Assembly: GCF_028464145.1 (NCBI RefSeq)
Contig: NZ_JAQPCG010000002.1
Location: 248,001 to 312,000, forward strand
Origin: Maribacter sp. PR1
GTDB lineage: Bacteria; Bacteroidota; Bacteroidia; Flavobacteriales; Flavobacteriaceae
Length of the DNA: 64,000 nucleotides
Direction: 5' to 3'
Part shown: positions 3,993 to 19,803 of the stretch, piece by piece
Layout of the letters: each line of letters opens with the position of its first letter
Numbering within the stretch: the first letter of the stretch is position 1
Notes under the pieces: generated by a model
Database searches by the model: none
Told to the model about the DNA's origin: nothing
What the model saw: only the letters and a program-made list of their open reading frames with translations
Position numbers and translations under genes: made by a program

Positions 3993-4511
3993 ATGCCCAA
4001 AGATTTAAACGAGAATGTATGTGATGATGAAATTTTCGCGGGTATATATAAAAAACTTTCCAAAGATTTACTAGGGTTCTTGTACTATAAATTTAACGGG
4101 CGTGCGGATTGTAATGATAAAATGCAAGAGGCTTTTATTAAACTATGGGATAATTGTAGGACCGTAAGTCCCAGTAAGGCAAAAGCCTTTCTATTTAAGG
4201 TAGCCAGTAATATGATGCTGAACGAGTTAAAACATGAAAAGGTTGTATTGAGGTATGCAAAACAGAAACCAAAAGATATTAATATCGAGACACCTCAATA
4301 TTTATTGGAGGAAGAAGAATTTCTAAAAAAATACCAAGTAGCCCTAGCCACATTGACCGAAAATCAACGTGTGGCCTTTTTACTTTTTAAGGCCGATGGT
4401 AAGAGCCAAAAGGAAATAGCAGAAATGTTGGGTGTTACGAGAAGAGTGGTAGAAAGCAGAATATTCAATGCTTATAAAAAATTAAGGAGTAGCATGGACG
4501 AGTTTAAGTAG
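3993..4511 (+). CDS. ECF RNA polymerase sigma factor (FecI-like)
   Basis: This is an extracytoplasmic-function sigma factor of 172 residues with only regions 2 and 4. Region 2 (about 20-85) holds the promoter-melting and core-binding segment, with the acidic MQEAFIKLWDN stretch. Region 4 (about 115-168) contains the helix-turn-helix KSQKEIAEMLGVTRRVVESR. A FecR anti-sigma gene and a TonB receptor gene follow, the standard cell-surface signalling set in which ligand uptake by the receptor releases the sigma factor. A TACATTTA sequence at 3963-3970, just upstream, resembles the Bacteroidota -7 box. The ligand cannot be read from the sequence. Confidence 0.93.
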   Translation: MPKDLNENVCDDEIFAGIYKKLSKDLLGFLYYKFNGRADCNDKMQEAFIKLWDNCRTVSPSKAKAFLFKVASNMMLNELKHEKVVLRYAKQKPKDINIETPQYLLEEEEFLKKYQVALATLTENQRVAFLLFKADGKSQKEIAEMLGVTRRVVESRIFNAYKKLRSSMDEFK

Positions 4512-4564
4512 AGCGACGCGTAAAAATTGTTTTTGAGTTGTTCTATTTAAGTAGCAGAAAATAT

Positions 4565-5473
4565 ATGGAAGAAAATTACCTTATAAAAAAATGGTTGACC
4601 GGCACACTTTCTAATGATGAATGGGAAGAATTTAAAAAGCTGGATGACTATGAATTACATTTAAAGTTGGGCGAAAAGGCCAAGTATTTTAAAGCCGAGG
4701 AATTTTTGAATCCTGCGGATTTTGATATACTAAAGGAAAGGATGAAGTCTAGACCAAGGCCAACGCAAAAGTTTAATACATATAAGACTTTAATGCGATT
4801 TGCCGCCTTATTGGTAATTGCCATTGGAGTCTACTTTGCTTTCAATTCTACTAATTTAACAGAAATAAATACTGGAGTGGGCGAAAAAACTACGGTATTT
4901 TTGCCAGATGCATCTGAAGTTTTGCTTAATGCCATGACCGAGATTGAATTCAATGAAAAGAAATGGGACAAAAAAAGAGAAATAAAACTATCGGGAGAAG
5001 CCTATTTTAAAGTAGCCAAAGGCGAAGTTTTTGATGTGCTTACTTCGGAAGGCAAAGTAAGTGTTTTAGGTACAAAGTTCAACGTAAAAAGTAGGGATGG
5101 ACTTTTTGAGGTTGTTTGCAATGAAGGCAGTGTTGGCGTTGAATACCAAGGAGAGTATGAGAAATTGCTTCCTGGCCAATACTTGCATGTTTATGACGGT
5201 GGAATAGCTATTGACAAGATTCCAAATGTTAAACCACTATGGCTTAAAAATATTAGTAACTTTAATAAAGTTCCTTTTTCTGAAGTGATTCAAGAGCTAG
5301 AAAGACAGTATGGTATAAAGGTGGAAGCCAAGAACGTTGATTTGAATCATGTTTTTAAGGGAGGATTTACGCATGATGATCTTAATAAAGCTTTGGAATC
5401 TATTACGTTACCAATGGGATTAACTTATGTTATCAAATCACCAAAACTGGTCGTTTTAAAATATAGTGAATAG
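4565..5473 (+). CDS. FecR-family anti-sigma factor
   Basis: This is an inner-membrane anti-sigma regulator. The N-terminal cytoplasmic part (about 1-75) would hold the ECF sigma factor. A single membrane helix follows near residues 78-95 (LLVIAIGVYFAF), then a periplasmic FecR domain rich in beta strands (about 105-200) and a C-terminal DUF4974-like STN segment that would contact the receptor. I chose the ATG at 4565; a TTG nine codons upstream stays in frame but adds nothing typical of the family. The gene lies 53 nt after the sigma factor, and its last 8 nt overlap the receptor gene, so translation is probably coupled. Confidence 0.93.
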   Translation: MEENYLIKKWLTGTLSNDEWEEFKKLDDYELHLKLGEKAKYFKAEEFLNPADFDILKERMKSRPRPTQKFNTYKTLMRFAALLVIAIGVYFAFNSTNLTEINTGVGEKTTVFLPDASEVLLNAMTEIEFNEKKWDKKREIKLSGEAYFKVAKGEVFDVLTSEGKVSVLGTKFNVKSRDGLFEVVCNEGSVGVEYQGEYEKLLPGQYLHVYDGGIAIDKIPNVKPLWLKNISNFNKVPFSEVIQELERQYGIKVEAKNVDLNHVFKGGFTHDDLNKALESITLPMGLTYVIKSPKLVVLKYSE

Positions 5474-7967
5474 TTGGAAGCTACTTTTCTTATTGGTATT
5501 CCTCCATATTGGTTCGTTTCTTCAGGGTCAAAATAAAGAGGAGAAGTTACCTCTTGCCCAAGTCCTAACAATTTTAGAAAGCCGGTACCGATGTCAATTT
5601 AATTATGTAGTTGAGACAACTGAAGGTATTTTACTTGAGGCACCTCCTAAACTTATGCCACTAAAAAAAGTAATTAAATATTTGGGTAAGGAGACGGAAC
5701 TTAACTATAGAATAGTATCCCAGGGCTTTATTACTATAGAACCTCGAAAAACATTCGTTTTTTGTGGTCACCTTAAAGATGAATTAACTAAAGAACCGAT
5801 TATTTCAGCTACGATTCAGAGTGATGACAGTGCAGTGATAAGCGACTCCTTAGGGTATTTTAAGATAAAGACGATTGACCGTAAGCTTACGATTCGGCAT
5901 CTAGGGTATAAAACAACTATAATTGAAACAGATTTTTTTAATTCCGATGGCTGTTCAACTATTTATTTAGACCAACAAGACGAAAGACTTTCCGAAGTGG
6001 TTATTATGAACTTATTGACAAAGGGTATCAATAAGAAAAGTGACGGTTCTTATCTCATAGACTTTTCAAATTTTGGAATACTCCCAGGCCTTTTGGAAAC
6101 CGACGCTCTACAAACCGTACAAGCTTTGCCGGGAGTGCAAAGTATAAATGAAACCGTGTCCAATATCAATATTAGAGGCGGGTCGAACGATCAAAACTTA
6201 TTGCTTTGGGATGGAATTAAAATGTATCAATCGGGTCATTTTTTTGGTTTAATTTCCATTTATAATCCTTTTATGACACCCTACACACGCCTAATTAAAA
6301 ATGGAAGTCAAGTAGACTACACCGATGGTGTTTCAGGAACCATAGAAATGGGAACTGCACGGGATCTTAACGATGAGTTTACAGGGAGTCTAGGCCTTAA
6401 TTTCATCAGTGCGTATGGTTTCGCGGATATTCCTTTGGGTAGGCGCTCCTCTTTACAAGTAGCTGCAAGAAACTCCATAAGTAATTTAGTAAAAACCCCA
6501 ACTTATAATTCATACGCCGATAGAATAATTTCTGGCACAGATCTACAATCAAATTTACAGTACCAAAAGGGTGCCGATATAGAGTTTGATTTTTATGACG
6601 CCAGCTTACGATGGCTATGGGAAATTAACGATAAAAATAGATTGCGTATCAGCTTTATGAATGTACGTAACGAATTTGACTTTAAGGAAGATTTTGTATC
6701 CGATGCTACACAAAACTTCAGGTCAAGCACCTTATTCCAAAATAGCCTCTCGCTTGGATTGCATTATAAAAGAAATTGGAGCAATTCCTTTACCTCTGAA
6801 CTCCAAGCCTATGTTACGGATTATGGTCTTGAGGCAAAGAATCAAGACCGAATAAAAGACCAGCTTTTTATGCAAGAGAATCATGTCCTGGAAACCGGGT
6901 TAAAATTCAATGGTTTTTATACGATGAAAAATGGGCTAAAACTATTGACAGGTTACCAATTTACTCAAACACAAATAACGGATTTCGATTTTGTTGATGA
7001 TCCAATATATCGTCTAAAAGTTCGAGAAATTATAAGTACCCACGGGCTATACGGGCAATTGCATTTAGAATCACAGAATAATTCAGCACAAATCAATATT
7101 GGTTTTCGATTTAATTATATAGATAAGCTGGATACTTACCGCTTGGAACCAAGAGTAAGCTATAACCAAAAGCTTTTTAAGCATTTTACCTTTGAGATAC
7201 TTGGTGAAATGAAGCATCAGGTGACTTCCCAGGTCATCAATTTTCAAAGTGATTTTTTGGGGATAGAAAAACGCCGATGGCAGTTGGCCAATAATAGTGA
7301 CATCCCATTAATTAAAAGTAGGCAAGCTTCAGCGGGTCTTCATTATGTAAAGAAAGGATGGTTGGTTAGCGGCGAGACCTATATTAAAGATGTTACCGGA
7401 ATTACCGCTCAAAGTCAAGGGTTTCAAAACCAGTATGAATTTGTTAAGTCAATTGGGAGTTATAATGCATATGGAATAGATTTTTTAATTAGAAAGGAAT
7501 GGGAAAAGTTTAATACTTGGCTAAGTTATTCCAACATGGAGAATCATTATAGGTTTGCGTTTTCAGAAAGGTCATTCCCCAACAATTTGGAGATTTACAA
7601 TGCCATTACTTTTGGTTCATCCTTTAAATGGAACAAATTGAAATTGTCGGCAGGTTTTACTTGGCATTCCGGAAAACCCACTACGCTGCCAATTATAAGG
7701 GAAGAAATTGTAAATGGGCAAGTAAATTATGAACCTGCCAATAGCAGTGTGCTTGATGAATATTTTAGAACCGATTTATCTGCGCATTACCAGATGAATT
7801 TGTCAGAGCACGTTAAGGCGGATTTAAGTTTTTCTATTTGGAATATTTCAGGGCATAGAAATAATATTAACAAATACTATTATATCAATGACTCCGGTAC
7901 TCTGCAGGAGGTAAACAAATATGGGTTAAACACTACGCCCAATTTTAGTTTTCGTTTGTCCTTTTAA
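5466..7967 (+). CDS. TonB-dependent receptor with STN and carboxypeptidase-D-like domains
   Basis: This is an outer-membrane receptor for energised uptake that also signals. The order is a signal peptide (about 1-22), a secretin/TonB short N-terminal domain (about 28-95) that would touch FecR, a carboxypeptidase-D regulatory-like beta domain (about 98-170), a plug (about 175-290, with LPGVQSI and NIRGG) and a 22-strand-type barrel ending in a terminal phenylalanine. The start is a GTG at 5466, overlapping the fecR stop by 8 nt; no ATG lies nearby. No SusD partner follows, so glycan import through a SusCD pair is unlikely. An iron chelate, heme or another small ligand is more plausible, but this is inference. 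Confidence 0.93.
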   Translation: MNSWKLLFLLVFLHIGSFLQGQNKEEKLPLAQVLTILESRYRCQFNYVVETTEGILLEAPPKLMPLKKVIKYLGKETELNYRIVSQGFITIEPRKTFVFCGHLKDELTKEPIISATIQSDDSAVISDSLGYFKIKTIDRKLTIRHLGYKTTIIETDFFNSDGCSTIYLDQQDERLSEVVIMNLLTKGINKKSDGSYLIDFSNFGILPGLLETDALQTVQALPGVQSINETVSNINIRGGSNDQNLLLWDGIKMYQSGHFFGLISIYNPFMTPYTRLIKNGSQVDYTDGVSGTIEMGTARDLNDEFTGSLGLNFISAYGFADIPLGRRSSLQVAARNSISNLVKTPTYNSYADRIISGTDLQSNLQYQKGADIEFDFYDASLRWLWEINDKNRLRISFMNVRNEFDFKEDFVSDATQNFRSSTLFQNSLSLGLHYKRNWSNSFTSELQAYVTDYGLEAKNQDRIKDQLFMQENHVLETGLKFNGFYTMKNGLKLLTGYQFTQTQITDFDFVDDPIYRLKVREIISTHGLYGQLHLESQNNSAQINIGFRFNYIDKLDTYRLEPRVSYNQKLFKHFTFEILGEMKHQVTSQVINFQSDFLGIEKRRWQLANNSDIPLIKSRQASAGLHYVKKGWLVSGETYIKDVTGITAQSQGFQNQYEFVKSIGSYNAYGIDFLIRKEWEKFNTWLSYSNMENHYRFAFSERSFPNNLEIYNAITFGSSFKWNKLKLSAGFTWHSGKPTTLPIIREEIVNGQVNYEPANSSVLDEYFRTDLSAHYQMNLSEHVKADLSFSIWNISGHRNNINKYYYINDSGTLQEVNKYGLNTTPNFSFRLSF

Positions 7968-8431: not shown

Positions 8432-9259
8432 TTGACTAAAACAGTCCATTTTATTTATATAAGTATGATGGTGTTAGTGACAATATTGGTGACCATATAT
8501 CTTTTTTATACCGGATACACCTATTATTTAACACCCTTGGAAGAGCGGTTTTATCATCCAAACCATAATTGGTTTAAACCCAGTGGTATTCAAGGTCAGG
8601 GTTTGGGTATCATAGGAACCTTCTTGATCGTATTTGGGGTTACCATATATATTCTAAGAAAACGATATAATTTACTAAGCAGATTTATCAGACTAAAATA
8701 CCTGCTTGAGTTTCATATTTTTTTATGCACCGTAGGGCCTATTATGATTCTCTTTCATACAGCGTTCAAGTTTGGAGGTATTGTATCTATTGCATTTTGG
8801 AGTATGACGGCGGTGGTGCTTAGTGGAGTTTTAGGGAGGTTTATTTATAACCAAATCCCAAGAACCATAGAAGGTAGGGAATTAAGTATTGGCGAGTTGA
8901 ACAATATGAAAACAAACTTGGCCGTATCGCTGCACCAGAAATATAATTTAGAGAGTAATACCATTGATATCGTTTCAAACTTAATGAGTGAAGAAAACAC
9001 GGACGATAGCGGTAAAAAATTGAGCTATTTAAAAAAGGTGTTGGGGCGTAAAGACGTTTCTAAAACGGATCGCAAAGAGATTTTAGGCATTGCAAAAAAG
9101 GAGTTTTCATTAACTAAAAAAATTGCAAGACTTCAAAAAATGCAAAAACTATTTAAATACTGGCATGTGATACATATGCCTTTTGCAATTATCATGTTGG
9201 TAGTTGTAATCATCCATGTGGCGGTAACGCTTGCCCTTGGTTATAAATGGATATTCTAA
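8432..9259 (+). CDS. Di-heme b-type cytochrome-like membrane protein
   Basis: This membrane protein of 275 residues has hydrophobic segments near 8-30, 57-76, 93-113, 117-140 and 246-270. Two helices carry histidine pairs with identical spacing: H95/H109 and H248/H262, each 14 residues apart. That is the classic layout for two stacked b hemes in one four-helix bundle, as in formate dehydrogenase gamma and thiosulfate reductase cytochrome b subunits. A charged cytoplasmic loop (about 141-240) lies between the helix pairs. I infer that it moves electrons across the inner membrane between the flavoprotein encoded next and the periplasmic multiheme cytochromes. The start is a TTG; an ATG at 8465 would shorten the first helix. 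The exact family was not identified. Confidence 0.7.
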   Translation: MTKTVHFIYISMMVLVTILVTIYLFYTGYTYYLTPLEERFYHPNHNWFKPSGIQGQGLGIIGTFLIVFGVTIYILRKRYNLLSRFIRLKYLLEFHIFLCTVGPIMILFHTAFKFGGIVSIAFWSMTAVVLSGVLGRFIYNQIPRTIEGRELSIGELNNMKTNLAVSLHQKYNLESNTIDIVSNLMSEENTDDSGKKLSYLKKVLGRKDVSKTDRKEILGIAKKEFSLTKKIARLQKMQKLFKYWHVIHMPFAIIMLVVVIIHVAVTLALGYKWIF

Positions 9260-10596
9260 TGAACGAGGTATTGCTGGAACAATTTATAATTTACGGAACC
9301 GTGTTTGCGCTTTGTGCAATCACCTTGTTTTTTTATACCCGTAAAAAAAAGAAGAACTATACCAAGACCAAGGAAAAAGTAAAATTGGCTAAAATAGAAG
9401 GCCTTTTTGAACCTGTTTCCCTACATCCGTTTATAGATTTAAAAAGTTGTATTGGTAGTGGTGCCTGTATAACCGCATGTCCTGAAAAGGACATTCTTGG
9501 GATTGTAGATGGTGTGGCAACGGTAATAAACACCTCCAATTGTATTGGTCACGGTGCCTGTTTTCATGCTTGTCCCGTAGAAGCGATTTCCCTTAGAATT
9601 GGTTCGGAGACCAGAGGTGTGGATTTGCCGCATGTCAGTGAGGATTACGAAACCAATATAAAGGGAATGTACATTGCTGGTGAACTTGGTGGTATGGGCC
9701 TTATTAAGAATAGTGTTGAACAAGGCCAAATGGCGGTAAAAAGTATGCTCAAATCAAAGAAACCCTCAAAAGAAGGTGTTTTGGATTTGGTCATCATTGG
9801 TGCTGGACCAGCAGGAATTTCCGCGTCTTTGGCAGCGAAGGAAAATAACATGACCTCAATCACTTTAGAACAAGATTCTTTAGGGGGTACGGTTTATACT
9901 TTTCCAAGGTCAAAAATAGTGATGACCGCGCCCATGAACCTACCCTTATATGGTAAGGTTAAATTGTTCGATACCAATAAAGATGAACTCTTACAGATCT
10001 GGAAAAAAGTAATTGCTGAACATCAATTGGATGTACGAGAACATTCTAAAGTTGATAAAATTGTCCCTATAGAAAATGAAGTATTCAAGATTGTTACCAA
10101 TACTGGCGAAGAATTTTTATGTAATCAAGTGCTGCTTTCAATCGGTAGGCGTGGTACGCCCAGAAAATTAGGGGTTACAGGGGAGGAAAGTCAAAAAGTG
10201 GCCTATAGGCTTCTAGAGCCAGAATTAATTAAGGATAAAAAAGTAATAGTAGTAGGCGGTGGTGATTCCGCTATTGAGTCGGCTATGTTGTTAGTGGATG
10301 CCAATGAGGTAATTCTTTCTTATAGGAAGGATAAATTTTCTAGGCTGAAACCCAAAAACAGAGATAAAATCCAAGAGGCTGAAAGCAATAACATTATAAA
10401 GGTCATTTACAATTCCAATTTGGTTTCAATAAAGGATAAAAGTGTACTCATGACTATTGATGGGGGAGAACCAGAAGAATTCGAAAATGATTTGGTGTAC
10501 ATTTTTGCCGGTGGGGAACTGCCCACTAGCTTTTTAGAAAGTGCCGGAGTGAAAATAACCAAGCGCTTTGGTCATATTATGAAATCGCATAAATAA
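9259..10596 (+). CDS. Fe-S/FAD NAD(P)-dependent oxidoreductase
   Basis: A membrane-anchored electron-input enzyme. An N-terminal helix (about 8-26) is followed by a lysine-rich stop-transfer stretch, so the rest is probably cytoplasmic. Two ferredoxin-like motifs follow, CIGSGACITACP and CIGHGACFHACP. Then comes a FAD-type segment (YIAGELGGMG) and a thioredoxin-reductase-like module with GAGPAG (about 181-186) and a second nucleotide-binding GGGDSA. In both cluster motifs the second of the four usual cysteines is replaced, by Ser and by His. I chose the ATG at 9259, which overlaps the previous stop in TAATG; an ATG at 9247 is also possible. The likely role is oxidising NAD(P)H and passing electrons to the di-heme protein. 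Confidence 0.85.
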   Translation: MNEVLLEQFIIYGTVFALCAITLFFYTRKKKKNYTKTKEKVKLAKIEGLFEPVSLHPFIDLKSCIGSGACITACPEKDILGIVDGVATVINTSNCIGHGACFHACPVEAISLRIGSETRGVDLPHVSEDYETNIKGMYIAGELGGMGLIKNSVEQGQMAVKSMLKSKKPSKEGVLDLVIIGAGPAGISASLAAKENNMTSITLEQDSLGGTVYTFPRSKIVMTAPMNLPLYGKVKLFDTNKDELLQIWKKVIAEHQLDVREHSKVDKIVPIENEVFKIVTNTGEEFLCNQVLLSIGRRGTPRKLGVTGEESQKVAYRLLEPELIKDKKVIVVGGGDSAIESAMLLVDANEVILSYRKDKFSRLKPKNRDKIQEAESNNIIKVIYNSNLVSIKDKSVLMTIDGGEPEEFENDLVYIFAGGELPTSFLESAGVKITKRFGHIMKSHK

Positions 10597-10598
10597 TA

Positions 10599-12437
10599 TT
10601 GAGAAATATAACGAAACATATAACCCTCATTTTGATGCTGGTAATAGGTGCGATATACGGCCAAATTTCACCTGGTGACTTGACCGATGCGCATGCAGAT
10701 TTGGAGGGTATAAGCAATTGTACCCAATGTCATGAATTAGGGAACAAAGTGTTGGACCGTTTGTGTTTGGAATGCCATACGGAAATACAGACTATGGTCA
10801 ATAAAAAAAGTGGTTATCACGGCAATACAGAAGTGGTAAAAAAAGATTGTGCGGAGTGCCATGGTGAGCATAATGGTAGAAAGTTTGATATGATGCGGTT
10901 TGACGAGGATGCTTTTGATCATAATCTCACCGGATATGAGCTAGAGGGGAAACATGAAACAGTAGATTGTCGCGAGTGTCACACACCAGATAATATTCAA
11001 GATTTGGACATTAATAAGAATAAGGAAACATTTTTAGGCTTGGATGAAGCTTGTTTATCCTGTCATGATGATTATCATCAGGGAACCCTTGCCGAAGACT
11101 GTAGGCAATGTCATGATATGCAAGGTTTTGAACCTGCACCATTATTTGATCATGCTGATGCAGAATTTGTTTTAAAAGGAGAACATATAGATGTAGACTG
11201 TATAGAATGCCACCAAATTACGACCCAGAACGGATTTGAATTTCAGGAGTTTACAGGTATTGAATTTAATGATTGTGTGAGTTGTCATGAAGATAAGCAC
11301 AACGAACAATTACCTGGTCAGTGTGCTCAATGCCATACGGAATCCTCTTTCAATGAATTTGCCGGAATGGATAAATTTGACCACAACCTTACTCGATTTG
11401 AATTAAAGGGTAGTCACAAGACCACGGACTGTTTTAATTGTCATACACCTACGTCGGAGCCACTTTTGGTTTTTCAAGATCAAAGAAATGTCAATGAAAA
11501 TAGTTGTGTTAGTTGTCATGAAGATGTCCATAATGGATCCTACGGTACCAACTGTGTAAAATGCCATAGGGAAACCAGCTTTTTGTCTCTTAGGAACATG
11601 GATTTCTTTGATCATAATGTTACAGATTATCCGTTGGAGGGAAAACATACAGAAGTAGATTGTAGGGAATGTCATGAAAAAAGGTTTTCAACACCTATCG
11701 ATTTTAGTGCATGTAATAATTGCCATGCCGATTACCACGAGGGTGAATTTACCGAAAATGAAATAACACCAGATTGTGTAACCTGCCATTCATTGGAAAA
11801 AGGATTTGATTATAGTCTGTATACCTTGGAGCAACATCAGGAAACAAAGTTTCCGTTAGAAGGGGCACATGTAGCAACGCCATGTTTTGCCTGTCATGTA
11901 GATGAAAGAAAAGATAGGTGGACTTTTAGGGAAATGGGGACAGATTGTGTGGATTGCCATGAAGACATCCATCAAGATTTTATAGATGAAAAATTTTATC
12001 CAAAAGATGACTGTAGGTATTGCCATAGTAATAAGGCATGGGCCGATGTTCCTTTTGATCACTCAAAAACAGATTGGCCGCTAGATGGCAAGCATTTGGA
12101 AGTGGACTGTAGGGAATGTCACTTTACTGAAAATGAAAATAAACCCAAAGAAATAGTCCAGGAATTCGCCAACCTAAATTCGGAATGTTATGCATGCCAT
12201 GAAAATGTTCACGGGACTGTTTTTGAGGAGGATGGGATTACGAATTGTATAAGCTGCCATGTAACGGATAGCTGGTACCCCAAAAGATTTAATCACGATA
12301 TGACGGATTTCCCGTTGGAAGGGGAACATGATAAAATAGCCTGTAGTTCATGTCATGAGGTCACCAATGCAGCAGGTGAAGTTGAAACGATTTATAAACT
12401 AGAAAAATTCAGATGTATAGACTGTCATTTACAATAG
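10599..12437 (+). CDS. Multiheme c-type cytochrome, 23 CxxCH motifs
   Basis: This is an exported cytochrome with a signal peptide (about 1-22, cut near IYG-Q) and 23 CxxCH heme-attachment motifs in 612 residues. It is built from about seven degenerate copies of a module. Each copy starts with FDH or a similar motif, runs through LEGKH and VDCRECH, and contains further CxxCH sites. The conserved lone histidines in each copy are natural sixth ligands, so most hemes may be bis-histidine. Such chains act as periplasmic or outer-membrane electron wires. The start is a TTG two nt after the previous stop, since the first ATG would cut the signal peptide. The end overlaps the next cytochrome gene by 25 nt. 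It resembles cytochrome c3/c7-type repeat proteins; the electron partner is inferred only from the operon. Confidence 0.93.
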   Translation: MRNITKHITLILMLVIGAIYGQISPGDLTDAHADLEGISNCTQCHELGNKVLDRLCLECHTEIQTMVNKKSGYHGNTEVVKKDCAECHGEHNGRKFDMMRFDEDAFDHNLTGYELEGKHETVDCRECHTPDNIQDLDINKNKETFLGLDEACLSCHDDYHQGTLAEDCRQCHDMQGFEPAPLFDHADAEFVLKGEHIDVDCIECHQITTQNGFEFQEFTGIEFNDCVSCHEDKHNEQLPGQCAQCHTESSFNEFAGMDKFDHNLTRFELKGSHKTTDCFNCHTPTSEPLLVFQDQRNVNENSCVSCHEDVHNGSYGTNCVKCHRETSFLSLRNMDFFDHNVTDYPLEGKHTEVDCRECHEKRFSTPIDFSACNNCHADYHEGEFTENEITPDCVTCHSLEKGFDYSLYTLEQHQETKFPLEGAHVATPCFACHVDERKDRWTFREMGTDCVDCHEDIHQDFIDEKFYPKDDCRYCHSNKAWADVPFDHSKTDWPLDGKHLEVDCRECHFTENENKPKEIVQEFANLNSECYACHENVHGTVFEEDGITNCISCHVTDSWYPKRFNHDMTDFPLEGEHDKIACSSCHEVTNAAGEVETIYKLEKFRCIDCHLQ

Positions 12438-14263
12438 CATTTTTATTTGGGTTATTTCTAGTAAATGCCCAATCGCCACATGGTGAAAATTTTAGGGTGG
12501 CCTGTGAACAGTGTCACGACCCTTCTGGGTGGACTATTGATTTTAATTCCCTGCAATATGACCATGATAAGACTGAGTTTCCTTTAGAAGGTTCACATCA
12601 GATGGTAGATTGTAAGTTATGCCATGAGGATTTGACTTTTAAAGGAGCTCCAATGGATTGTGCCACGTGCCATACAGATGTTCATAGTCAATCTGTGGGT
12701 AATGATTGTGTTCGTTGTCATACTTCAGAATCCTGGTTGGTAAATAATATTCCGGAAATTCATGAAGAAAATGGATTTGCTTTGGTGGGGTCACATAGTA
12801 ATTTAAGCTGTATAGAATGTCATACATCTGAAACGGCCTTGCGTTTTGATCGTATTGGGAATGATTGCATCAACTGTCACCAAGATGATTATGCCAATAC
12901 ACAAAGTCCAGACCATCAAGCAGGTGGGTTTTCTATGGATTGTACCGAATGTCACAATCCAATGGGTTTTGGCTGGGATTCACAAAGTATAAATCACGAC
13001 TTTTTCCCGTTGACACAAGGTCATGATATTCAAGATTGTACACAATGTCATACCACAGGAAACTATGCAGATGCTTCTCCGGAATGTATAAGTTGTCACC
13101 AAGAGGATTATGCTGCTACGCAAGACCCTAACCATCAAATCAATGGTTTTTCAACCGATTGTGCTTCTTGTCATACAACCGCTCCAGGTTGGAAACCGGC
13201 AACTATTAACCATGACTTTTTTCCTCTAACGCAAGGTCATGATATTCAGGATTGTATCGAATGCCATACCAATGGTACCTATGCTGGTCTTACCCCTGAT
13301 TGTGTCAATTGTCACCAAGAGGATTATAACGGTACGCAGGACCCAAATCACCAAACAACTGGTTTTTCTACCGATTGTGTCATTTGTCATACGACCAATC
13401 CAGGGTGGACCCCGGCAACCATAAACCATGATTTTTTCCCTTTGACACAAGGACATGACATACAGGATTGTACCGCGTGTCATACCAATGGCACCTATTC
13501 GGGTCTTTCCCCCGATTGTGTAAATTGTCACCAAGCGGATTATAACGGTACCCAGGACCCTAATCACCAAACCAGTGGTTTTTCAACAGACTGTGCTTCT
13601 TGCCATAGTACCAACCCAGGATGGTCACCAGCAGTAATAAACCATGACTTTTTCCCGTTGACTTTGGGGCATGATATTCAGGATTGTACCCAATGCCATA
13701 CCAATGGCACTTATGTAGGGCTTTCCCCGGATTGCGTCAATTGCCACCAAGAGGATTATAACGGTACCCAAGACCCAAATCACCAGACCAGCGGTTTTTC
13801 AACGGACTGCGCATCCTGTCATAGTACCAACCCGGGATGGTCTCCTGCGTCAATAAATCATGATTTTTTCCCATTGACACAAGGACATGACATTCAGGAT
13901 TGTAACCAATGCCATACCAATGGTACCTATACTGGACTTTCACCGGACTGTGTCAATTGTCATCAAGATGATTATAACCAGACCACTGATCCTAATCACC
14001 AGGCAGCAGGTTTCCCAACCGATTGTGTTTCGTGCCATACAACGGCTCCTGGTTGGAGCCCTTCGACTTTTGACCATGATAATTATTTTCCCATTTATTC
14101 TGGAAACCACCGTCAAGGCGAGACTTGGGATACCTGTATAGAATGCCATACTACACCAAACAATTTTACGGTTTTTGACTGTATACATTGCCATCAGGAT
14201 GACCACAATACAAATCTGGGCAATCAAAGATGTTATGAATGCCACCCTAATGGCAGAGAATAA
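12413..14263 (+). CDS. Multiheme c-type cytochrome, 25 CxxCH motifs, tandem 72-aa repeats
   Basis: A second large exported cytochrome, with a signal peptide (about 1-19, ending VNA-Q) and 25 CxxCH motifs in 616 residues. The first 190 residues follow the same module style as the preceding cytochrome (YDH, PLEGSH, VDCKLCH). The rest is five nearly identical 72-residue units starting at NHDFFPL, and then a diverged last unit. Each unit has three CxxCH motifs and exactly three other histidines (NHD, GHD, PNH), which matches three bis-histidine hemes per unit. The ATG start lies inside the end of the previous gene, so translation is probably coupled. Together the two proteins could carry 48 hemes. 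The cellular site, periplasm or cell surface, cannot be decided from the sequence. Confidence 0.93.
   Translation: MYRLSFTIAFLFGLFLVNAQSPHGENFRVACEQCHDPSGWTIDFNSLQYDHDKTEFPLEGSHQMVDCKLCHEDLTFKGAPMDCATCHTDVHSQSVGNDCVRCHTSESWLVNNIPEIHEENGFALVGSHSNLSCIECHTSETALRFDRIGNDCINCHQDDYANTQSPDHQAGGFSMDCTECHNPMGFGWDSQSINHDFFPLTQGHDIQDCTQCHTTGNYADASPECISCHQEDYAATQDPNHQINGFSTDCASCHTTAPGWKPATINHDFFPLTQGHDIQDCIECHTNGTYAGLTPDCVNCHQEDYNGTQDPNHQTTGFSTDCVICHTTNPGWTPATINHDFFPLTQGHDIQDCTACHTNGTYSGLSPDCVNCHQADYNGTQDPNHQTSGFSTDCASCHSTNPGWSPAVINHDFFPLTLGHDIQDCTQCHTNGTYVGLSPDCVNCHQEDYNGTQDPNHQTSGFSTDCASCHSTNPGWSPASINHDFFPLTQGHDIQDCNQCHTNGTYTGLSPDCVNCHQDDYNQTTDPNHQAAGFPTDCVSCHTTAPGWSPSTFDHDNYFPIYSGNHRQGETWDTCIECHTTPNNFTVFDCIHCHQDDHNTNLGNQRCYECHPNGRE
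12992..14071 (+). repeat. Five tandem 216-bp coding repeats
   Basis: Units begin at 12992, 13208, 13424, 13640 and 13856, exactly 216 nt apart, and a diverged sixth start follows at 14072. The units are very similar in DNA as well as protein. This points to recent duplication and possible copy-number change by slippage or recombination. Each unit encodes a three-heme module of the 25-heme cytochrome. Confidence 0.92.
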
Positions 14264-14269
14264 GTTTGC

Positions 14270-15850
14270 ATGAAAAAACTATTAAATTTTATAATGGCCT
14301 TCATGGCACTGGTGCCTATTATGTCTGGTCAAGAAATTGATAAGACGTTAACGGGTAAGGTAACTTTTGTGACCTCCCAGAATATCTATGTCCGTTTTAC
14401 GGACACAGAACCAATAGCAATTGGTGATTCTTTGCAGCTAAAAGCTAGTAGTGCATCTTGCTTGGTCGTTACCAGTAAATCTACAACCTCTTGTGTTTGT
14501 GAAATTATAAATGGTTGTGCTGTAGAAAAAGGAGATGCCGTTACTTATAACGTTATACCTAAAAAGAAGATTGAAGCACCTAAAATTGTAAAGGAGGAAT
14601 TAACTTTAGGAACGACCGATTTAGCAGAAGAGGAACCCTTTTATAAAGAAGATATAAGAGGTAGGATATCCGCCAGTAGTCAAAGCATTATTGCGAGTAA
14701 CAGGGATGATCGCCATAGATTTATGGGAAGGCTTTCCTTGAACGCAGATCATCTACGGAATTCTAAATTTTCATTTAATACTTATTTAAACTATCGGCAA
14801 ATATTAGATTCTGGTGAAAGTTCTTCACTTCGACAAAATAGTCTTTTCAGAGTCTATAATTTAGCGGCACATTACGAAGTATTGCCCTCTTTGTCGGTAA
14901 TTTTAGGAAGAAATATCAATCCAAAAATATCATCATTGGGTGCTATTGATGGACTACAGGCCGAAAAGTATTTTGGTAAAAAATATATAGGCGCCATTGT
15001 TGGTTTTAGACCTGATATTTTTGATTTTGGATTCAATTCCAACTTACTGCAATATGGCGGTTATGTTGGTGTTGCAACAGATAGTGACGATTTATATTCC
15101 CAGACTACTTTAGGGTTTATACAACAGCAAAATAGCGGTGAGATAGACCGTAGATATGCTTATTTTCAACATAACAGTACCATTTTAAAAAACTTGAACG
15201 TTTTTTCATCATTGGAGGTAGATTTGTTTAGCAATTTGAACAATGAGGTGAGTAATGATATTAGATTGACCAATTTGTATGTTTCCGCTAGATATCGATT
15301 CAATAGAAAGCTAAACTTGTCACTGTCTTATGATTCAAGAAAACGCATTTTGTATTATGAAACCTTCCAGACAGATATTGAAAGATTGCTGGATAATAAT
15401 ATGGCACGTCAGGGAGCACGTGCCCGTATTAATTTTAAACCTTACAAGGGTATAATGGCGGGCGCCAGTTACAGTAAACGATTTCAGAATAATAGTGAAA
15501 ACAAATCGGACAATATAAATGGGTTTGTTACTTTTTCTAGATTGTCAAATATTGGAGGTAGACTCTCCCTATCATATAACAGAAATGATTCCAATTATTT
15601 ATTAAGTAATATTGGTTCCGCACGTTATTATCGCGATTTTTTACGTGGAAGATTAAATACCAATGTTTACTATAGATATGTGCATTACGATTATGTGAAT
15701 ATGCTCAATACTTTTGATCAACATTATATGGGAGCTGATGTATCCTATAACATTACAAGAAAACTATTATTCAGTATTTCAGGGGAGTATACTATGTATA
15801 ACCAAGAAAATAACATAAGGATTTTTACAAGATTAATACAACGATTTTAA
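14270..15850 (+). CDS. Predicted outer-membrane beta-barrel protein of the cytochrome operon
   Basis: A signal peptide (about 1-20) is followed by a small beta domain of about 75 residues with the pattern GKVTFV...VRF...GDSLQL and four cysteines near residues 63-84. A linker comes next. From about residue 125 there are alternating hydrophobic and polar strands with aromatic girdle residues, and the protein ends in phenylalanine, as outer-membrane barrels usually do. The length (526 aa) allows roughly 16-20 strands. It starts 6 nt after the 25-heme cytochrome gene. I infer a porin partner for the cytochromes, as in porin-cytochrome conduits, but there is no recognisable MtrB family signature. 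It may instead be a general porin. Confidence 0.7.
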   Translation: MKKLLNFIMAFMALVPIMSGQEIDKTLTGKVTFVTSQNIYVRFTDTEPIAIGDSLQLKASSASCLVVTSKSTTSCVCEIINGCAVEKGDAVTYNVIPKKKIEAPKIVKEELTLGTTDLAEEEPFYKEDIRGRISASSQSIIASNRDDRHRFMGRLSLNADHLRNSKFSFNTYLNYRQILDSGESSSLRQNSLFRVYNLAAHYEVLPSLSVILGRNINPKISSLGAIDGLQAEKYFGKKYIGAIVGFRPDIFDFGFNSNLLQYGGYVGVATDSDDLYSQTTLGFIQQQNSGEIDRRYAYFQHNSTILKNLNVFSSLEVDLFSNLNNEVSNDIRLTNLYVSARYRFNRKLNLSLSYDSRKRILYYETFQTDIERLLDNNMARQGARARINFKPYKGIMAGASYSKRFQNNSENKSDNINGFVTFSRLSNIGGRLSLSYNRNDSNYLLSNIGSARYYRDFLRGRLNTNVYYRYVHYDYVNMLNTFDQHYMGADVSYNITRKLLFSISGEYTMYNQENNIRIFTRLIQRF

Positions 15851-15860
15851 ATTTTATATC

Positions 15861-16679
15861 ATGAGAATTAAATTAAATATAGTAAGCGTACTAGCTATTA
15901 CGGTAATGGTTAGCTCCTGTAATAATGGACCAAAGGTCATTGCACCTTCCACAGAATCAGATGGAGTTTCCGAGTCTAGCGGAAGTGGCATTTTCGCTCC
16001 TAATCCAGATATTCAGGTCACCCAAAATAATACGGGTGCCTTTAATGAAGATTTACATAAAGTGGTGGTTAAGGAAGTGCTGCCTACAGACCGTTATGTA
16101 TATTTAAAAGTTATTGAGGACTCAAACAAACAATTTTGGATCGCTTCTAGAAAACAGGAAGTGGCCAAAGGGGATGTTTATTTTTACAGAAACCCACTTT
16201 TGAAAACAAATTTTGAAAGTAAAGAGTACAATAGGGTATTTGACACCATTTACCTGGTTACCAATTTAGTTGCAGAAGACCATTCCAAACATGTGGGCCA
16301 ATTAAATACTGCGACCAGTAGTCCTACCATGGAGAAAGTTAGGGTTGTAAAAGAAGATATTCCTACCCATACGGATAAAAAAGTTGAATTTAAAGGAGCT
16401 ATTAAAATTTCTGAATTGGTAAAAGACCCCAAAAAATATGAAGGGTATTCCGTTCAAATTAACGGAAAGTGTGTAAAGGTCAACCCTAATATTATGCAGC
16501 GCAATTGGCTCCATATCCAGGATGGTAGTAAGAATGACTTTGATTTAGTAGTTACCTCAAGTTCATTTGTTCCAGAAGGTTCGGATATCACTATTAAGGC
16601 TACCGTAAGTTTAAATCGAGATTTTGGCGCAGGTTATAAGTACGACCTGATTTTAGAAAACGGTACCTTGATTAAATAG
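15861..16679 (+). CDS. Lipoprotein with C-terminal OB-fold-like domain
   Basis: The leader ends in a lipobox (VSSC, cysteine 20), so this is a lipid-anchored envelope protein. Residues about 25-60 form a Ser/Gly/Asn-rich linker. A beta-rich domain follows (about 70-150). The C-terminal part (about 175-270) has the shape of an OB-fold domain of the kind found beside c-type cytochromes: ISELVKDPKKYEG, then QINGKCVKV, NWLHIQDG and a final beta pair. It starts 10 nt after the barrel gene, is the last gene of the operon, and converges on ccsBA with only 10 nt between the stops. It may help to assemble or anchor the cytochrome complex, which is inference. Confidence 0.75.
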   Translation: MRIKLNIVSVLAITVMVSSCNNGPKVIAPSTESDGVSESSGSGIFAPNPDIQVTQNNTGAFNEDLHKVVVKEVLPTDRYVYLKVIEDSNKQFWIASRKQEVAKGDVYFYRNPLLKTNFESKEYNRVFDTIYLVTNLVAEDHSKHVGQLNTATSSPTMEKVRVVKEDIPTHTDKKVEFKGAIKISELVKDPKKYEGYSVQINGKCVKVNPNIMQRNWLHIQDGSKNDFDLVVTSSSFVPEGSDITIKATVSLNRDFGAGYKYDLILENGTLIK

Positions 16680-16689
16680 TTATTTTAGA

Positions 16690-19600
16690 TTAGGATATTA
16701 TTTTAAACTTTCGCTTTTTAAGGTACGCTAAGGTGCTTATAATTACTATTGTTACTACAACAATATATACCCAATTCGGAATAGGAATGGGGTCTCCAGT
16801 AGCATAAGAATGTAATCCGGATAAGTAATAGTTTACACCGTAATAGGTCATAAGTACGGATGCCAATCCAAAAATTGTGGCAACATTATAAGCAAAAAGG
16901 CCTGTTAACTTTGGTATAATACGCATATGTAGAATAAATGCATATACCAAAATAGTAACCAAAGCCCAGGTTTCCTTGGCATCCCAGCCCCAGTATCTTC
17001 CCCAAGACTCGTTGGCCCAAACACCACCTAAATAGGTGCCGACACTTACCATAAATAGTCCACCTATTAAGGTAAGCTCGCTGATATAGGACATTTCTTG
17101 TATAATTCGTTTAATTCTATCCATATTGGATTCTTTCAAGAAAATCATGAGGACAAGATTAATTAAGCCTATGATGGCACCTAGCATCAAGAAACCATAA
17201 CTACCTGCTTCTAAAGAAACGTGAATGGTTAGCCAATAGGATTTTAAGACGGGAACCAAAGGCGTAATTTCAGGATCAAGAAAACTTAAGGTAGAAACCA
17301 ATAAAATGGTTGCCGCTAATACCATGGTTGCGGCAAGCCCTCCAAAAGATTTTCTTGTAAACAGAACACCTGCCAATGTAGAGGTCCAGGCAATATAGAT
17401 CATAGATTCATAACCATTACTCCAAGGTGCACGTCCGGAAACGTACCAACGTAGACCAAGCCCTATAGTGTGCAGTACAAAGCCAATTACCACCAAGGCA
17501 AATAAAATTTGATACACCTTTTTAAGTTTGATATTTGGTTTAAATACGGAGAGGAACAGGAAAAACAATAATGCCAGGCCTAAAAGAAAATAGAAGATTG
17601 CCAATCTGGTAAACACATTCATTTTGTTCAACAGAATTTCAGCATTTAATTTTGTATCTGAAGGTAGCACCTCACCACCGTTATTCTTCTGGTAATCCTT
17701 TAGCTCAGTAAGTAATAGGTTAGCCTGATCATAGTTATCACTAGTAATTCCGGACTTTAATGCAGAAGCATAGGCATTGAAAAATTTATCGGCCACATTA
17801 TTTTCATGATTATGACCGTCGTTTTGGCTGTGATTATGGGTTGAATTGGATACCCAAGTATTATTTGGGTCACCAGGATTTGGAATAATTTTTAAAAGTG
17901 ACCCAGAAAAGGCCATACTCAGAATATTGATACGTTCATCAATTTTCATGAGTTCTTTTTCATAGACCCCTTTATCAATGGGATCCAAACTATAGATCCT
18001 ACGCATTTCTTCCCGTAGTTTATAGGTGCCATTTTGGTCAAAGAAGTCTTTGTATGCGGCATAATCTTCCGCAACACTTAACAATTTATGAATGTTTTGA
18101 TGTTTTCCCAATTTGATGATCGGTGCGCTGTACCACGCTTGCTTATTCGCAAAAAGACTCAATATAATCTGGTCAGCACTTAACCCGTACATACTTTCCT
18201 TACGGGCCAATTTCCGCATAATTTCCCGAGAGAGGGTATGCATAGGTTTCATCCTTCCTTTAAAATCCTGCACTACCAAAGAACTGAACTCGCTGGCATG
18301 GTCTGCTTCAACTGCATTTTTAACAAAAGATTCTTGAGCATTCGCGGATAAAGAAATAAACAGGACTAGGATAAAAGTGCCGCTCTTTGCTCTAAGTTTT
18401 TTGATTTTTTGGGTGACTTGGTAAAAACGGGTGTTCTTATTGAACAGAGTCCATAGCATACCTATGGTCAATAGGGCATAGCCTATGTAGGAAATCCAAG
18501 TACCCCAAAAATCGTGGTTTACACTTAAATAGGTTCCTTTCTCATCTTTGTCAAAAGATGATTGAAAGAAACGGTAGCCATCATAATCTAATATATTATT
18601 CATAAAAATGCGATAATCAAAGCGTTCATTGTTTCTGGAATCCATAAGGGTAACTTCACTCGCATAGGAAGAGGCACTGTTAGTACCAGGATATTTTTCA
18701 AGTATAAATTCGTTGAGTTTTATTTGAAAGGGCACAACCACTTCTTTGGAACCATAGGATACCGAGATGTCTAAATTATTAAAGTTCAATAGCTGAGGTC
18801 TTCCTGAATTTCCTCTACTACCGTACACCATAGCTTCCTGCGAATTACCATTAACGGATATATCCATTACTACGGCGTTTACGCTCTCGTTTTTGATTTT
18901 TGAACTTTCAGAAACCATTTGAACTTTACCACTTTTCATAAATTTTGAAAACACCACATTTGTACTGCCATCAGAGTAAAGTGATCTTAAGCGCAAAGGG
19001 TTATAGGTATTGAAGCCCATAATAGTGTCCTTTTGTTGTGTGGCCATTACGGTCTGTGTAAAGGTTCTATCGGAAGAAAAAAATAATGAATCATTGCGTA
19101 AAACAATGTTGAAAGCATTGGGTAGTAGCGTTTCCTTGAAATTATATACAAAATTGCGGATGCGTTTTGTTTGACCTTGATTGATGAAATACTCTTCCCT
19201 TCCATTTGCCCCTGCAACTACAATTTGTATAGTAGGTTTACCGTCAATACTCTCGACCAACCTTTGTTTGGGGTTGGGTATAAAATCTTTGACTTTTATC
19301 TCAACAAGATCATCACCAATTAAATAAGATTCACTCCAACTATTATTTCCTAAGGAGGCGAACAAAACAGGTTCTTCAAAATCATAGGTTTGCCCAGCTT
19401 TTGACACCTTAAATTTCAAAAATGAATTGGATGATAAAAAGCGGTTGGAAGCATTATTTTCTCGAATATGCATAACACCCTCAAAACCAAAGTATCGTGT
19501 TACACCCGCACCTATTAAAATGATAATGATGGACGCATGAAATAGTAATAATGGCCATTTCTTTTGAGGAATCATTCGGAACTTGAAAATATTCACAATA

Positions 19601-19803
19601 ATGCTAATACCGAATAATAGAAGTAAGAGTTCAAACCACCAAGATTTGAAAATGACCTTTTGTGCCGCACTGGTGCCAAAATCGTTTTCCACAAAAGTGG
19701 CGATAGCTATGGCTGCGGCGAATAGTAGTATATAAAGTCCGGCAGCTCTGGTGTTAAAAAGACTAGAAATAAGTTTTTTTGATTTCTGAAAGATGTTCAA
19801 CAT
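16690..19803 (-). CDS. ccsBA: System II cytochrome c synthase, fused ResB-CcsA
   Basis: This enzyme exports heme and attaches it to CxxCH motifs of apocytochromes in the periplasm. The N-terminal half is ResB/CcsB-like, with helices near 18-37, 48-66 and 77-95, a long periplasmic beta region and a helix near 440-460. The C-terminal half is CcsA, with several helices and the tryptophan-rich heme-handling motif WGRYWGWDAKE near residue 930. Conserved histidines flank this motif. At 1037 residues it matches the fused form of Bacteroidota. The middle region contains a histidine-rich loop (HNHSQNDGHNH, near residue 657). Its position next to 48 CxxCH motifs fits its role, although it is on the opposite strand and separately transcribed. 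Confidence 0.93.
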   Translation of the reverse strand: MLNIFQKSKKLISSLFNTRAAGLYILLFAAAIAIATFVENDFGTSAAQKVIFKSWWFELLLLLFGISIIVNIFKFRMIPQKKWPLLLFHASIIIILIGAGVTRYFGFEGVMHIRENNASNRFLSSNSFLKFKVSKAGQTYDFEEPVLFASLGNNSWSESYLIGDDLVEIKVKDFIPNPKQRLVESIDGKPTIQIVVAGANGREEYFINQGQTKRIRNFVYNFKETLLPNAFNIVLRNDSLFFSSDRTFTQTVMATQQKDTIMGFNTYNPLRLRSLYSDGSTNVVFSKFMKSGKVQMVSESSKIKNESVNAVVMDISVNGNSQEAMVYGSRGNSGRPQLLNFNNLDISVSYGSKEVVVPFQIKLNEFILEKYPGTNSASSYASEVTLMDSRNNERFDYRIFMNNILDYDGYRFFQSSFDKDEKGTYLSVNHDFWGTWISYIGYALLTIGMLWTLFNKNTRFYQVTQKIKKLRAKSGTFILVLFISLSANAQESFVKNAVEADHASEFSSLVVQDFKGRMKPMHTLSREIMRKLARKESMYGLSADQIILSLFANKQAWYSAPIIKLGKHQNIHKLLSVAEDYAAYKDFFDQNGTYKLREEMRRIYSLDPIDKGVYEKELMKIDERINILSMAFSGSLLKIIPNPGDPNNTWVSNSTHNHSQNDGHNHENNVADKFFNAYASALKSGITSDNYDQANLLLTELKDYQKNNGGEVLPSDTKLNAEILLNKMNVFTRLAIFYFLLGLALLFFLFLSVFKPNIKLKKVYQILFALVVIGFVLHTIGLGLRWYVSGRAPWSNGYESMIYIAWTSTLAGVLFTRKSFGGLAATMVLAATILLVSTLSFLDPEITPLVPVLKSYWLTIHVSLEAGSYGFLMLGAIIGLINLVLMIFLKESNMDRIKRIIQEMSYISELTLIGGLFMVSVGTYLGGVWANESWGRYWGWDAKETWALVTILVYAFILHMRIIPKLTGLFAYNVATIFGLASVLMTYYGVNYYLSGLHSYATGDPIPIPNWVYIVVVTIVIISTLAYLKKRKFKIIS

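What the first reader, a model, noticed from the sequence alone, without database searches (positions are those of the whole stretch)
8432..16679. Candidate transmembrane electron conduit with 48 predicted c hemes
Six tightly packed genes encode a flavin/Fe-S NAD(P) oxidoreductase, a di-heme b-type membrane protein, two exported cytochromes with 23 and 25 CxxCH motifs, a predicted outer-membrane barrel and a lipoprotein. The parts cover every step from cytoplasmic NAD(P)H to the outer membrane. Porin-cytochrome conduits are known from Shewanella and Geobacter, but these proteins do not show their signatures. A conduit of this make-up in a flavobacterium would be new to me. The direction of flow and the terminal acceptor are not visible.
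Basis: partly seen in the sequence, partly recalled or inferred. Interest (0 to 1): 0.8.

Follow-up and report, generated by a model that had tools for sequence, protein, structure and literature searches.

The report
Predicted flavobacterial cross-envelope heme wire
A flavobacterium carries a conserved set of six genes that looks like a complete electrical wire from the cell interior through both membranes, much like an untested wire predicted earlier in proteobacteria, and one of its proteins comes in many lengths.

Summary
The six genes, 48 CxxCH motifs (23+25) and coordinates are confirmed. The block (membrane b-cytochrome B, Fe-S/flavoprotein FeS, cytochromes cyt1 and cyt2, barrel, lipoprotein, then CcsBA) is co-inherited: in 37 of 40 named loci with at least 9 kb before the barrel, all four redox genes precede it, from Flavobacteriaceae to Ignavibacteriales. 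In a draw of 296 phylum genomes the barrel was found in 27, all 27 with B. One whole block lies on an Emticicia plasmid. B carries the Hx13H/SGxxG/Hx13H signature of 'PCC3/PCC4' inner-membrane proteins of He et al. 2017; the barrel is modelled with 22 strands. cyt1 keeps 20 or 23 hemes at near-fixed spacing; cyt2 has 13 to 61, built from 3-heme modules, and can differ between close strains. Best reading: an NAD(P)H-fed outward electron conduit of PCC3-like plan with an added cytosolic Fe-S/flavin subunit; my paper searches found no description of it in Bacteroidota. Location of cyt2, direction and acceptor are inferred. PCC3 sequences could not be compared. The block is patchy (7 of 149 family genomes).

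The parts
8432..9259 (+). B: 275-aa, 5-TM membrane protein, probably di-heme b-type; H95/H109 (TM3), S131GxxG135 (TM4), W244, H248/H262 (TM5)
   Evidence: PCC3/PCC4 IMP signature in PMC5566968
9247..10596 (+). FeS: N-terminal TM stretch, two ferredoxin motifs (about 9424-9591; C68-S71-C74-C78P and C99-H102-C105-C109P), FAD/NAD(P) domain (about 9784-10566)
10599..12437 (+). cyt1: probably exported 23-heme cytochrome, near-fixed heme spacing in relatives
12413..14263 (+). cyt2: probably exported 25-heme cytochrome with tandem 72-aa 3-heme modules
12989..14001 (+). 216-bp tandem array (4.7 copies, 80% matches) encoding the cyt2 modules
14270..15850 (+). barrel: N-terminal small beta domain (aa 26-94) then 22 predicted barrel strands (aa 128-525)
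15861..16679 (+). lipo: probable lipoprotein (C20) with two OB-like domains
16690..19803 (-). CcsBA cytochrome c assembly protein, convergent; a second copy elsewhere in the genome is 40% identical

Best explanation
An outward, NAD(P)H-fed porin-cytochrome conduit of PCC3-like plan. Cytosolic NAD(P)H reduces the FAD of FeS; electrons pass through its two Fe-S clusters to the cytoplasmic-side heme of B, then to its periplasmic-side heme, then to cyt1, a 23-heme rod with a His for every heme that bridges the periplasm, then through the 22-strand barrel to cyt2, a modular heme wire that faces or reaches the outside. The lipoprotein anchors or assembles the outer-membrane part and CcsBA attaches the hemes. 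Shown by sequence or model: the parts, His pairs, heme modules, barrel, co-inheritance. Inferred: docking order, outward direction, surface exposure of cyt2, acceptor (metal oxides, humics, flavins, or iron to be acquired).
For: Co-inheritance. B: two Hx13H and SGxxG conserved, the signature given for PCC3/PCC4 IMPs, the Hx13H pairs also for ferric reductase/NOX domains. Loop charges (+6 in the TM2-3 loop; 22 K/R against 13 D/E in the 110-residue TM4-5 loop) put these loops inside, so one His pair lies on each side (inference). cyt1: 23 conserved distal His for 23 hemes in 35 sequences, 21 for 20 in 12; cyt2: at least as many non-motif His as hemes in 50 of 50: conduction rather than catalysis. 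cyt2 has 13-61 hemes while cyt1 has 20 or 23. Barrel model with 22 strands. The same inner-membrane logic (2Fe-2S/FAD reductase, IMP, 7-heme cytochrome) is seen in 7 of 7 plasmid loci opened. PCC3 periplasmic MHCs have 21/24/27 hemes and extracellular ones 10-35 in Gallionellaceae (PMC10734462, passages). Direction (inference from general bioenergetics): electrons leaving NAD(P)H for c-hemes run downhill and with the membrane potential.
Against: No transcript, protein or electrode data. Neither cytochrome shows a lipobox (N-terminal letters) and I saw no surface-export signal; no dedicated predictor was run. Barrel fold matches are generic (ushers, Occ porins, AlgE; TM-score on the model's length at most 0.45 in the 50 shown; MtrB not among them); barrel closure was not checked. 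PCC3 itself is functionally unverified (PMC12442390 passages), and in Sideroxydans ES-1 it went down on Fe(II) (PMC8788666 passages). B could still use quinone. No FNR-type site upstream beyond chance. Two of 29 genomes with strong B lack a found barrel, and the one other genome of the own genus searched has none.
Confidence: 0.6

Rival explanations
1. Inward electron uptake: extracellular Fe(II), Mn(II) or another donor feeds cyt2, barrel, cyt1 and B, with B reducing quinone and FeS serving a side role.
For: He et al. drew PCC3 from an extracellular donor to the quinone pool (PMC5566968); known conduits can be bidirectional (PMC8258643 passage).
Against: 43 of 44 loci with B also have FeS, the exception being a decayed one (L028); electron transfer from Fe(II) to NAD(P)+ through B would be uphill chemically and against the membrane potential (inference).
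Confidence: 0.17
2. The block reduces extracellular or surface-bound ferric iron (or another metal) for acquisition or detoxification rather than respiration.
For: ECF sigma, FecR and a receptor-like gene lie just upstream and their homologues lie beside B in L047; 5 of the 7 plasmid triples opened sit near copper or heavy-metal genes; B shares the Hx13H pairs of ferric reductase domains.
Against: Homologues of the upstream genes were found in only 1 of 61 named loci, within the flanks held (L047); 48 hemes exceed what a simple ferric reductase needs (inference).
Confidence: 0.13
3. The cytochromes are a periplasmic electron store or feed a soluble periplasmic reductase, and the barrel is an ordinary porin.
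For: No surface signal seen on cyt2; a capacitor role has been proposed for PCC3 cytochromes (PMC10734462 passage); nitrite reductase NrfA is enriched in block-bearing genomes, 18 of 27 against 28 of 269 (kinship not controlled).
Against: The barrel was not found without B in 296 genomes; the own genome has the block but no NrfA match; cyt2 length varies widely, unlike a part bound to the width of the periplasm (inference).
Confidence: 0.1

Closest known systems
PCC3 porin-cytochrome cluster (He et al. 2017, PMC5566968)
   Same: Porin, two giant cytochromes (one of about 21 hemes, one variable and larger), 5-TM IMP with SGxxG and two Hx13H motifs, 22-39 residues per heme, repeat-built cytochromes.
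   Different: Described in Alpha-, Beta- and Gammaproteobacteria with four genes; here Bacteroidota/Ignavibacteriales, with an Fe-S/FAD/NAD(P) protein, an OB-like lipoprotein and usually CcsBA. Sequence kinship of porins and cytochromes untested.
PCC4 subgroup II (same paper, passages)
   Same: Fe-S gene next to the IMP gene.
   Different: Porin with three periplasmic cytochromes and no extracellular one; Fe-S protein given as pfam13247.
MtrCAB / MtoAB / PioAB
   Same: Barrel plus multiheme cytochromes; same kind of task.
   Different: No MtrB_PioB match in the genome; DmsE decaheme model at 61.4 bits against cut-off 192.2.
Geobacter extHIJKLMNOPQS (selenite/tellurite) cluster
   Same: Porin, multiheme cytochromes, b-type membrane protein; weak hits to ExtJ (barrel N-terminus, E 0.014) and ExtN (cyt1).
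   Different: Hits far below cut-offs; Rieske protein and other gene content (PMC5877670 passages).
Plasmid triples: 2Fe-2S/FAD reductase, IMP, 7-heme cytochrome
   Same: Same inner-membrane logic; both Hx13H in 6 of 7 and SGxxG in 6 of 7 IMPs.
   Different: The only plasmid with a relative of the barrel, or of most of cyt1, was Emticicia's; no giant cytochrome is annotated beside the 7 triples opened.
NADPH oxidase / ferric reductase domain
   Same: Two Hx13H pairs on two helices, fed by a flavin protein (recalled).
   Different: Separate Fe-S/flavin protein of thioredoxin-reductase type; electrons go to a heme wire.

Membership tests
PCC3 | 5-TM inner-membrane protein with SGxxG on TM4 and two (W)x3Hx13H on TM3 and TM5 | tested here: met
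   of 44 sequences with letters (the 45th is a fragment) H95, H109, S131, G132, G135, W244, H262 in 44, H248 in 43; but the first W (W91) only in 9.
PCC3 | Outer-membrane barrel gene in the cluster | tested here: met
   Model with 22 strands, pLDDT 84.8, pTM 0.65; membrane location itself not shown.
PCC3 | Periplasmic cytochrome of about 21 hemes | tested here: met
   Heme number only: cyt1 23 in 35 and 20 in 12 of 47 sequences including the window; location inferred.
PCC3 | Extracellular cytochrome with many, variable hemes | tested here: inconclusive
   Counts 13-61 met; extracellular location not shown.
PCC3 | 22-39 residues per heme | tested here: met
   cyt2 24.3-27.5 in 50 sequences; window cyt1 612/23.
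PCC3 | Sequence homology of porin and cytochromes to proteobacterial PCC3 | not testable with these tools
MtrAB/MtoAB/PioAB | MtrB_PioB barrel (PF11854) | tested here: not met
   0 matches in the genome; none for the barrel in Pfam/NCBIfam at E up to 0.1.
MtrAB/MtoAB/PioAB | DmsE/MtrA decaheme cytochrome | tested here: not met
   61.4 bits, cut-off 192.2.
Geobacter ext (selenite/tellurite) cluster | ExtJ, ExtN family models | tested here: not met
   15.8 bits vs 52.5; 44.3 vs 200.
Geobacter OmbB-OmaB-OmcB | OmbB-type porin | not tested
   No model of that name was used; no porin family passed its cut-off for the barrel.

The most novel reading that the evidence does not exclude
Bacteroidota have their own phylum-wide class of trans-envelope wire, once seen on a plasmid, that takes electrons straight from NAD(P)H, by-passing quinone, through an unusual Fe-S protein whose two clusters have Ser/Thr and His where ferredoxins have the second Cys, and whose outer wire is length-tunable by gain or loss of 3-heme modules between close relatives.
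Probability: 0.33. Interest if true: 0.82.

Novelty: new variant of a known kind. Interest (0 to 1): 0.62.

Why it matters
It extends a predicted, untested class of giant-heme conduits to a phylum better known for heterotrophs (recalled), names hosts such as Arenibacter, Maribacter, Yeosuana, Aequorivita and Emticicia in which it can be tested, and offers natural length variants of one wire (16 against 25 hemes in two Arenibacter with 94-98% identity in B, FeS, cyt1 and barrel) to ask how heme number sets reach or rate.

Tried and rejected
Ext (Geobacter) kinship was followed because of weak hits and dropped: far below cut-offs. Mtr kinship: none found. FNR, CRP, Fur-like and flavobacterial promoter patterns in 300 bp before B in 43 sequences: no more than simple shuffles give, apart from one CRP-like site in L066. 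NosZ association: 11 of 27 against 88 of 269, not significant. Sequence searches of PDB chains with barrel, its alignment, the lipo alignment and B: nothing credible. PHROGs with barrel and lipo: nothing credible. PMC11475568: 0 occurrences of Bacteroid-, Flavobacter-, Ignavibacter-, Chlorobi in the main text (supplement not seen). Foldseek of the barrel gave generic barrels; of lipo, tandem OB-fold proteins with low TM-scores. Cytochrome_B family PF00033: no match in the own genome.

Caveats. Tandem repeats can collapse in short-read assemblies; in the window neighbouring modules share 135-178 of 216 bases, so collapse is less likely here, but single relatives may be wrong. Of eight pairs of loci picked by hand, cyt2 counts differ in four and agree in four. 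The NrfA cut (E < 1e-50) was mine, and the lists were copied by hand into. The genome search scores only a few first-look candidates per genome (4), so barrels may be missed; some of its 27 barrel matches are partial.
Full report
OBSERVATION. The six ORFs lie where stated, on one strand, overlapping or at most 10 bases apart. CxxCH counts are 23 and 25; no other open stretch over 60 codons in the 64 kb has more than one. Both cytochromes begin with a hydrophobic, signal-like stretch, use every Cys in a motif and carry 24 and 26 further His. Pfam names cytochrome C7/c3 domains and Fer4_10 + Pyr_redox_3; B, barrel and lipo have no family above its cut-off. A CcsBA gene lies convergently after lipo; the genome holds a second copy, 40% identical. 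The host is a member of Flavobacteriaceae by inference: three 'same family' contigs (G037, G133, G073) have the lengths of the Maribacter, Yeosuana and Marinirhabdus contigs.

CO-INHERITANCE. In the family, the barrel occurs in 7 of 149 genomes including its own; the one other genome of the own genus listed (G075) lacks it. The other six, each of another genus, have the order B-FeS-cyt1-cyt2-barrel-lipo, five with convergent CcsBA and the sixth cut by its contig end in lipo. Homologues in the 61: B 44, FeS 44, cyt1 46, cyt2 59, barrel 60, lipo 49, CcsBA 40; many loci are cut by contig ends. In 40 loci the barrel frame starts at least 9 kb in; 37 of the 40 have B, FeS, cyt1 and cyt2 before it; the exceptions are L028 (decayed), L056 (only cyt1 before the barrel) and L070 (only cyt2). 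Of 49 with at least 5 kb downstream, 44 have a lipo homologue and 39 a CcsBA homologue somewhere in the locus. Record titles range from Flavobacteriaceae through Saprospiraceae and Bacteroidales to Ignavibacteriales, many of them metagenome bins. A whole block (23 and 40 hemes) with CcsBA in front lies on plasmid pEMTOL02 of Emticicia oligotrophica, typed as non-mobilizable. The reverse test used a draw of 296 phylum genomes, own genome included: barrel in 27 (some matches partial); B at E < 1e-60 in 29, among them all 27; B without a found barrel in G361 and G432; four further genomes had only weak B hits. By the listed coordinates B and a barrel match lie within 10 kb in 25 of 27 (G228 on two contigs, G436 about 20 kb apart). 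Of these, G283 is a decayed remnant, and G401 counts by its second barrel match, its best one lying about 95 kb off with two stops.

ANATOMY. B: H95/H109 on TM3, S131-G132-x-x-G135 on TM4, W244-H248-H262 on TM5, each in 43 or 44 of 44 sequences with letters; W91 in 9. Loop charges put the TM2-3 and TM4-5 loops inside, so one His pair is near the cytoplasm and one near the periplasm (inference). FeS: C68, C74, C78-P79 and C99, C105, C109-P110 are invariant in 45 sequences; at the place of the canonical second Cys stand S (41) or T (4) at 71 and H (45 of 45) at 102. Its C-terminal half is closest to YpdA/thioredoxin-reductase-type enzymes. That residues 71 and 102 are ligands is inference; NADH or NADPH is untested.

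cyt1: the spacing of motifs in the sequences printed is nearly identical from the window to Ignavibacteriales; the 20-heme form differs chiefly by one 3-heme module. Counts: 23 in 35 and 20 in 12 sequences. Conserved distal His: 23 in the 23-heme set, 21 in the 20-heme set. cyt2: in the sequences printed, an N-terminal spacing (36,16,16,34,19,25,32,16,25, small variants), repeats of 31,16,25 (variants such as 35,15,25) and an end cap. Of 50 sequences not cut by contig ends (window included; 10 cut ones left out), 47 have 3n+1 motifs; the three others (18, 32, 42) show long gaps where a plain CxxCH is missing. Range 13-61. Two Arenibacter differ 25 to 16 and two Yeosuana 22 to 31 with 82-98% identity in B, FeS, cyt1 and barrel; four of the eight pairs compared show no difference. 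The tree of B+FeS+barrel (support values not printed) shows cyt2 counts changing near the tips and cyt1 counts at a few deep places.

Barrel: AlphaFold2 from 55 sequences, pLDDT 84.8, pTM 0.65; I count 22 strands of 9 or more residues at 128-525 after a small beta domain 26-94 and a poorly predicted linker. A 22-strand barrel has a backbone radius of about 20 A against about 24 A for 26 strands (formula; 26 for MtrB is recalled). Closure of the barrel was not checked. Foldseek hits are generic. lipo: pLDDT 80.7, pTM 0.43; best matches are tandem OB-fold proteins at low TM-score; role unknown.

MECHANISM. The order of carriers follows from topology and neighbourhood: NAD(P)H, FAD, Fe-S, two b hemes, cyt1, barrel, cyt2. 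A His for each heme argues for conduction. Near-constant cyt1 and widely varying cyt2 fit a periplasm-bridging part and a part not confined by the periplasm (inference). Outward flow follows if FeS is the obligate partner, since NAD(P)+ reduction from outside donors would be uphill and against the potential (inference from general bioenergetics). Quinone use by B is not excluded. The own genome has NosZ above cut-off and no NrfA match; NrfA is enriched among block-bearing genomes, 18 of 27 against 28 of 269, while NosZ is not, 11 of 27 against 88 of 269. The first hints at low-oxygen life but is not corrected for kinship.

KNOWN KINDS. He et al. 2017 (PMC5566968; passages, sections 15 and 17 in full) describe PCC3: porin, extracellular MHC (median 34 hemes), periplasmic MHC (median 21), and an IMP of about 300 aa with the motif above, in Proteobacteria. 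PMC10734462 (passages) gives 21/24/27 and 10-35 hemes and long, mostly linear models. PMC12442390 (passages) calls PCC3 functionally unverified; PMC8788666 (passages) found it lowered on Fe(II). PMC7399161 (passages) reports variable-length giant MHCs in Burkholderiales and OmbB-like clusters in Ignavibacteria. PMC8258643 (passages) reports a seven-gene cluster (six MHCs and a barrel) in a Bacteroidetes MAG, of other make-up. Searches for a Bacteroidota system of this make-up listed none that I could recognise; only open-licence PMC papers are held, and most of the listed papers were seen as listings only.

A wider inner-membrane theme: tblastn of B against plasmids gave 47 records. Seven plasmid loci opened (five, two) all have a 2Fe-2S or FAD reductase, an IMP-like protein and a 7-heme cytochrome in that order; two Hx13H in 6 of 7 and SGxxG in 6 of 7.

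VERDICT. A real gene block, conserved but patchy; it meets the PCC3 features that could be tested, while sequence kinship and protein location could not be; with a cytosolic entry module not in the PCC3 description and a new host phylum, it is a new variant of a known, still unproven kind.

Noticed in passing
window 3993-7967: ECF sigma factor, FecR and a receptor-like gene (weak CarbopepD_reg domain) directly upstream; homologues (44-57%) lie beside B in L047, opposite strand.
   Followed up: partly
window 9424-9591: Ferredoxin motifs with invariant Ser/Thr and invariant His at the place of the second Cys (45 of 45 sequences).
   Followed up: partly
L075 9736-19218: Whole block on plasmid pEMTOL02 of Emticicia oligotrophica, with YceI, Rieske and DUF5777 barrel genes upstream.
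   Followed up: partly
L028 about 9919-12093; G283 contig 56: Decayed copies: a piece of B next to a barrel that lacks its front part; in L028 FeS and both cytochromes were not found.
   Followed up: no
L086-L092: Recurrent plasmid triple of 2Fe-2S/FAD reductase, IMP and 7-heme cytochrome, in 5 of 7 near copper or heavy-metal genes; function unknown.
   Followed up: partly
own genome C1 342284-342742: A further open frame of 463 codons with Cytochrome_C7 matches outside the block.
   Followed up: no
L046, L055: A second cyt2-like gene in the locus (19 and 13 hemes).
   Followed up: no
window 20584-22266: Hybrid histidine kinase/response regulator on the + strand, beyond the CcsBA gene.
   Followed up: no
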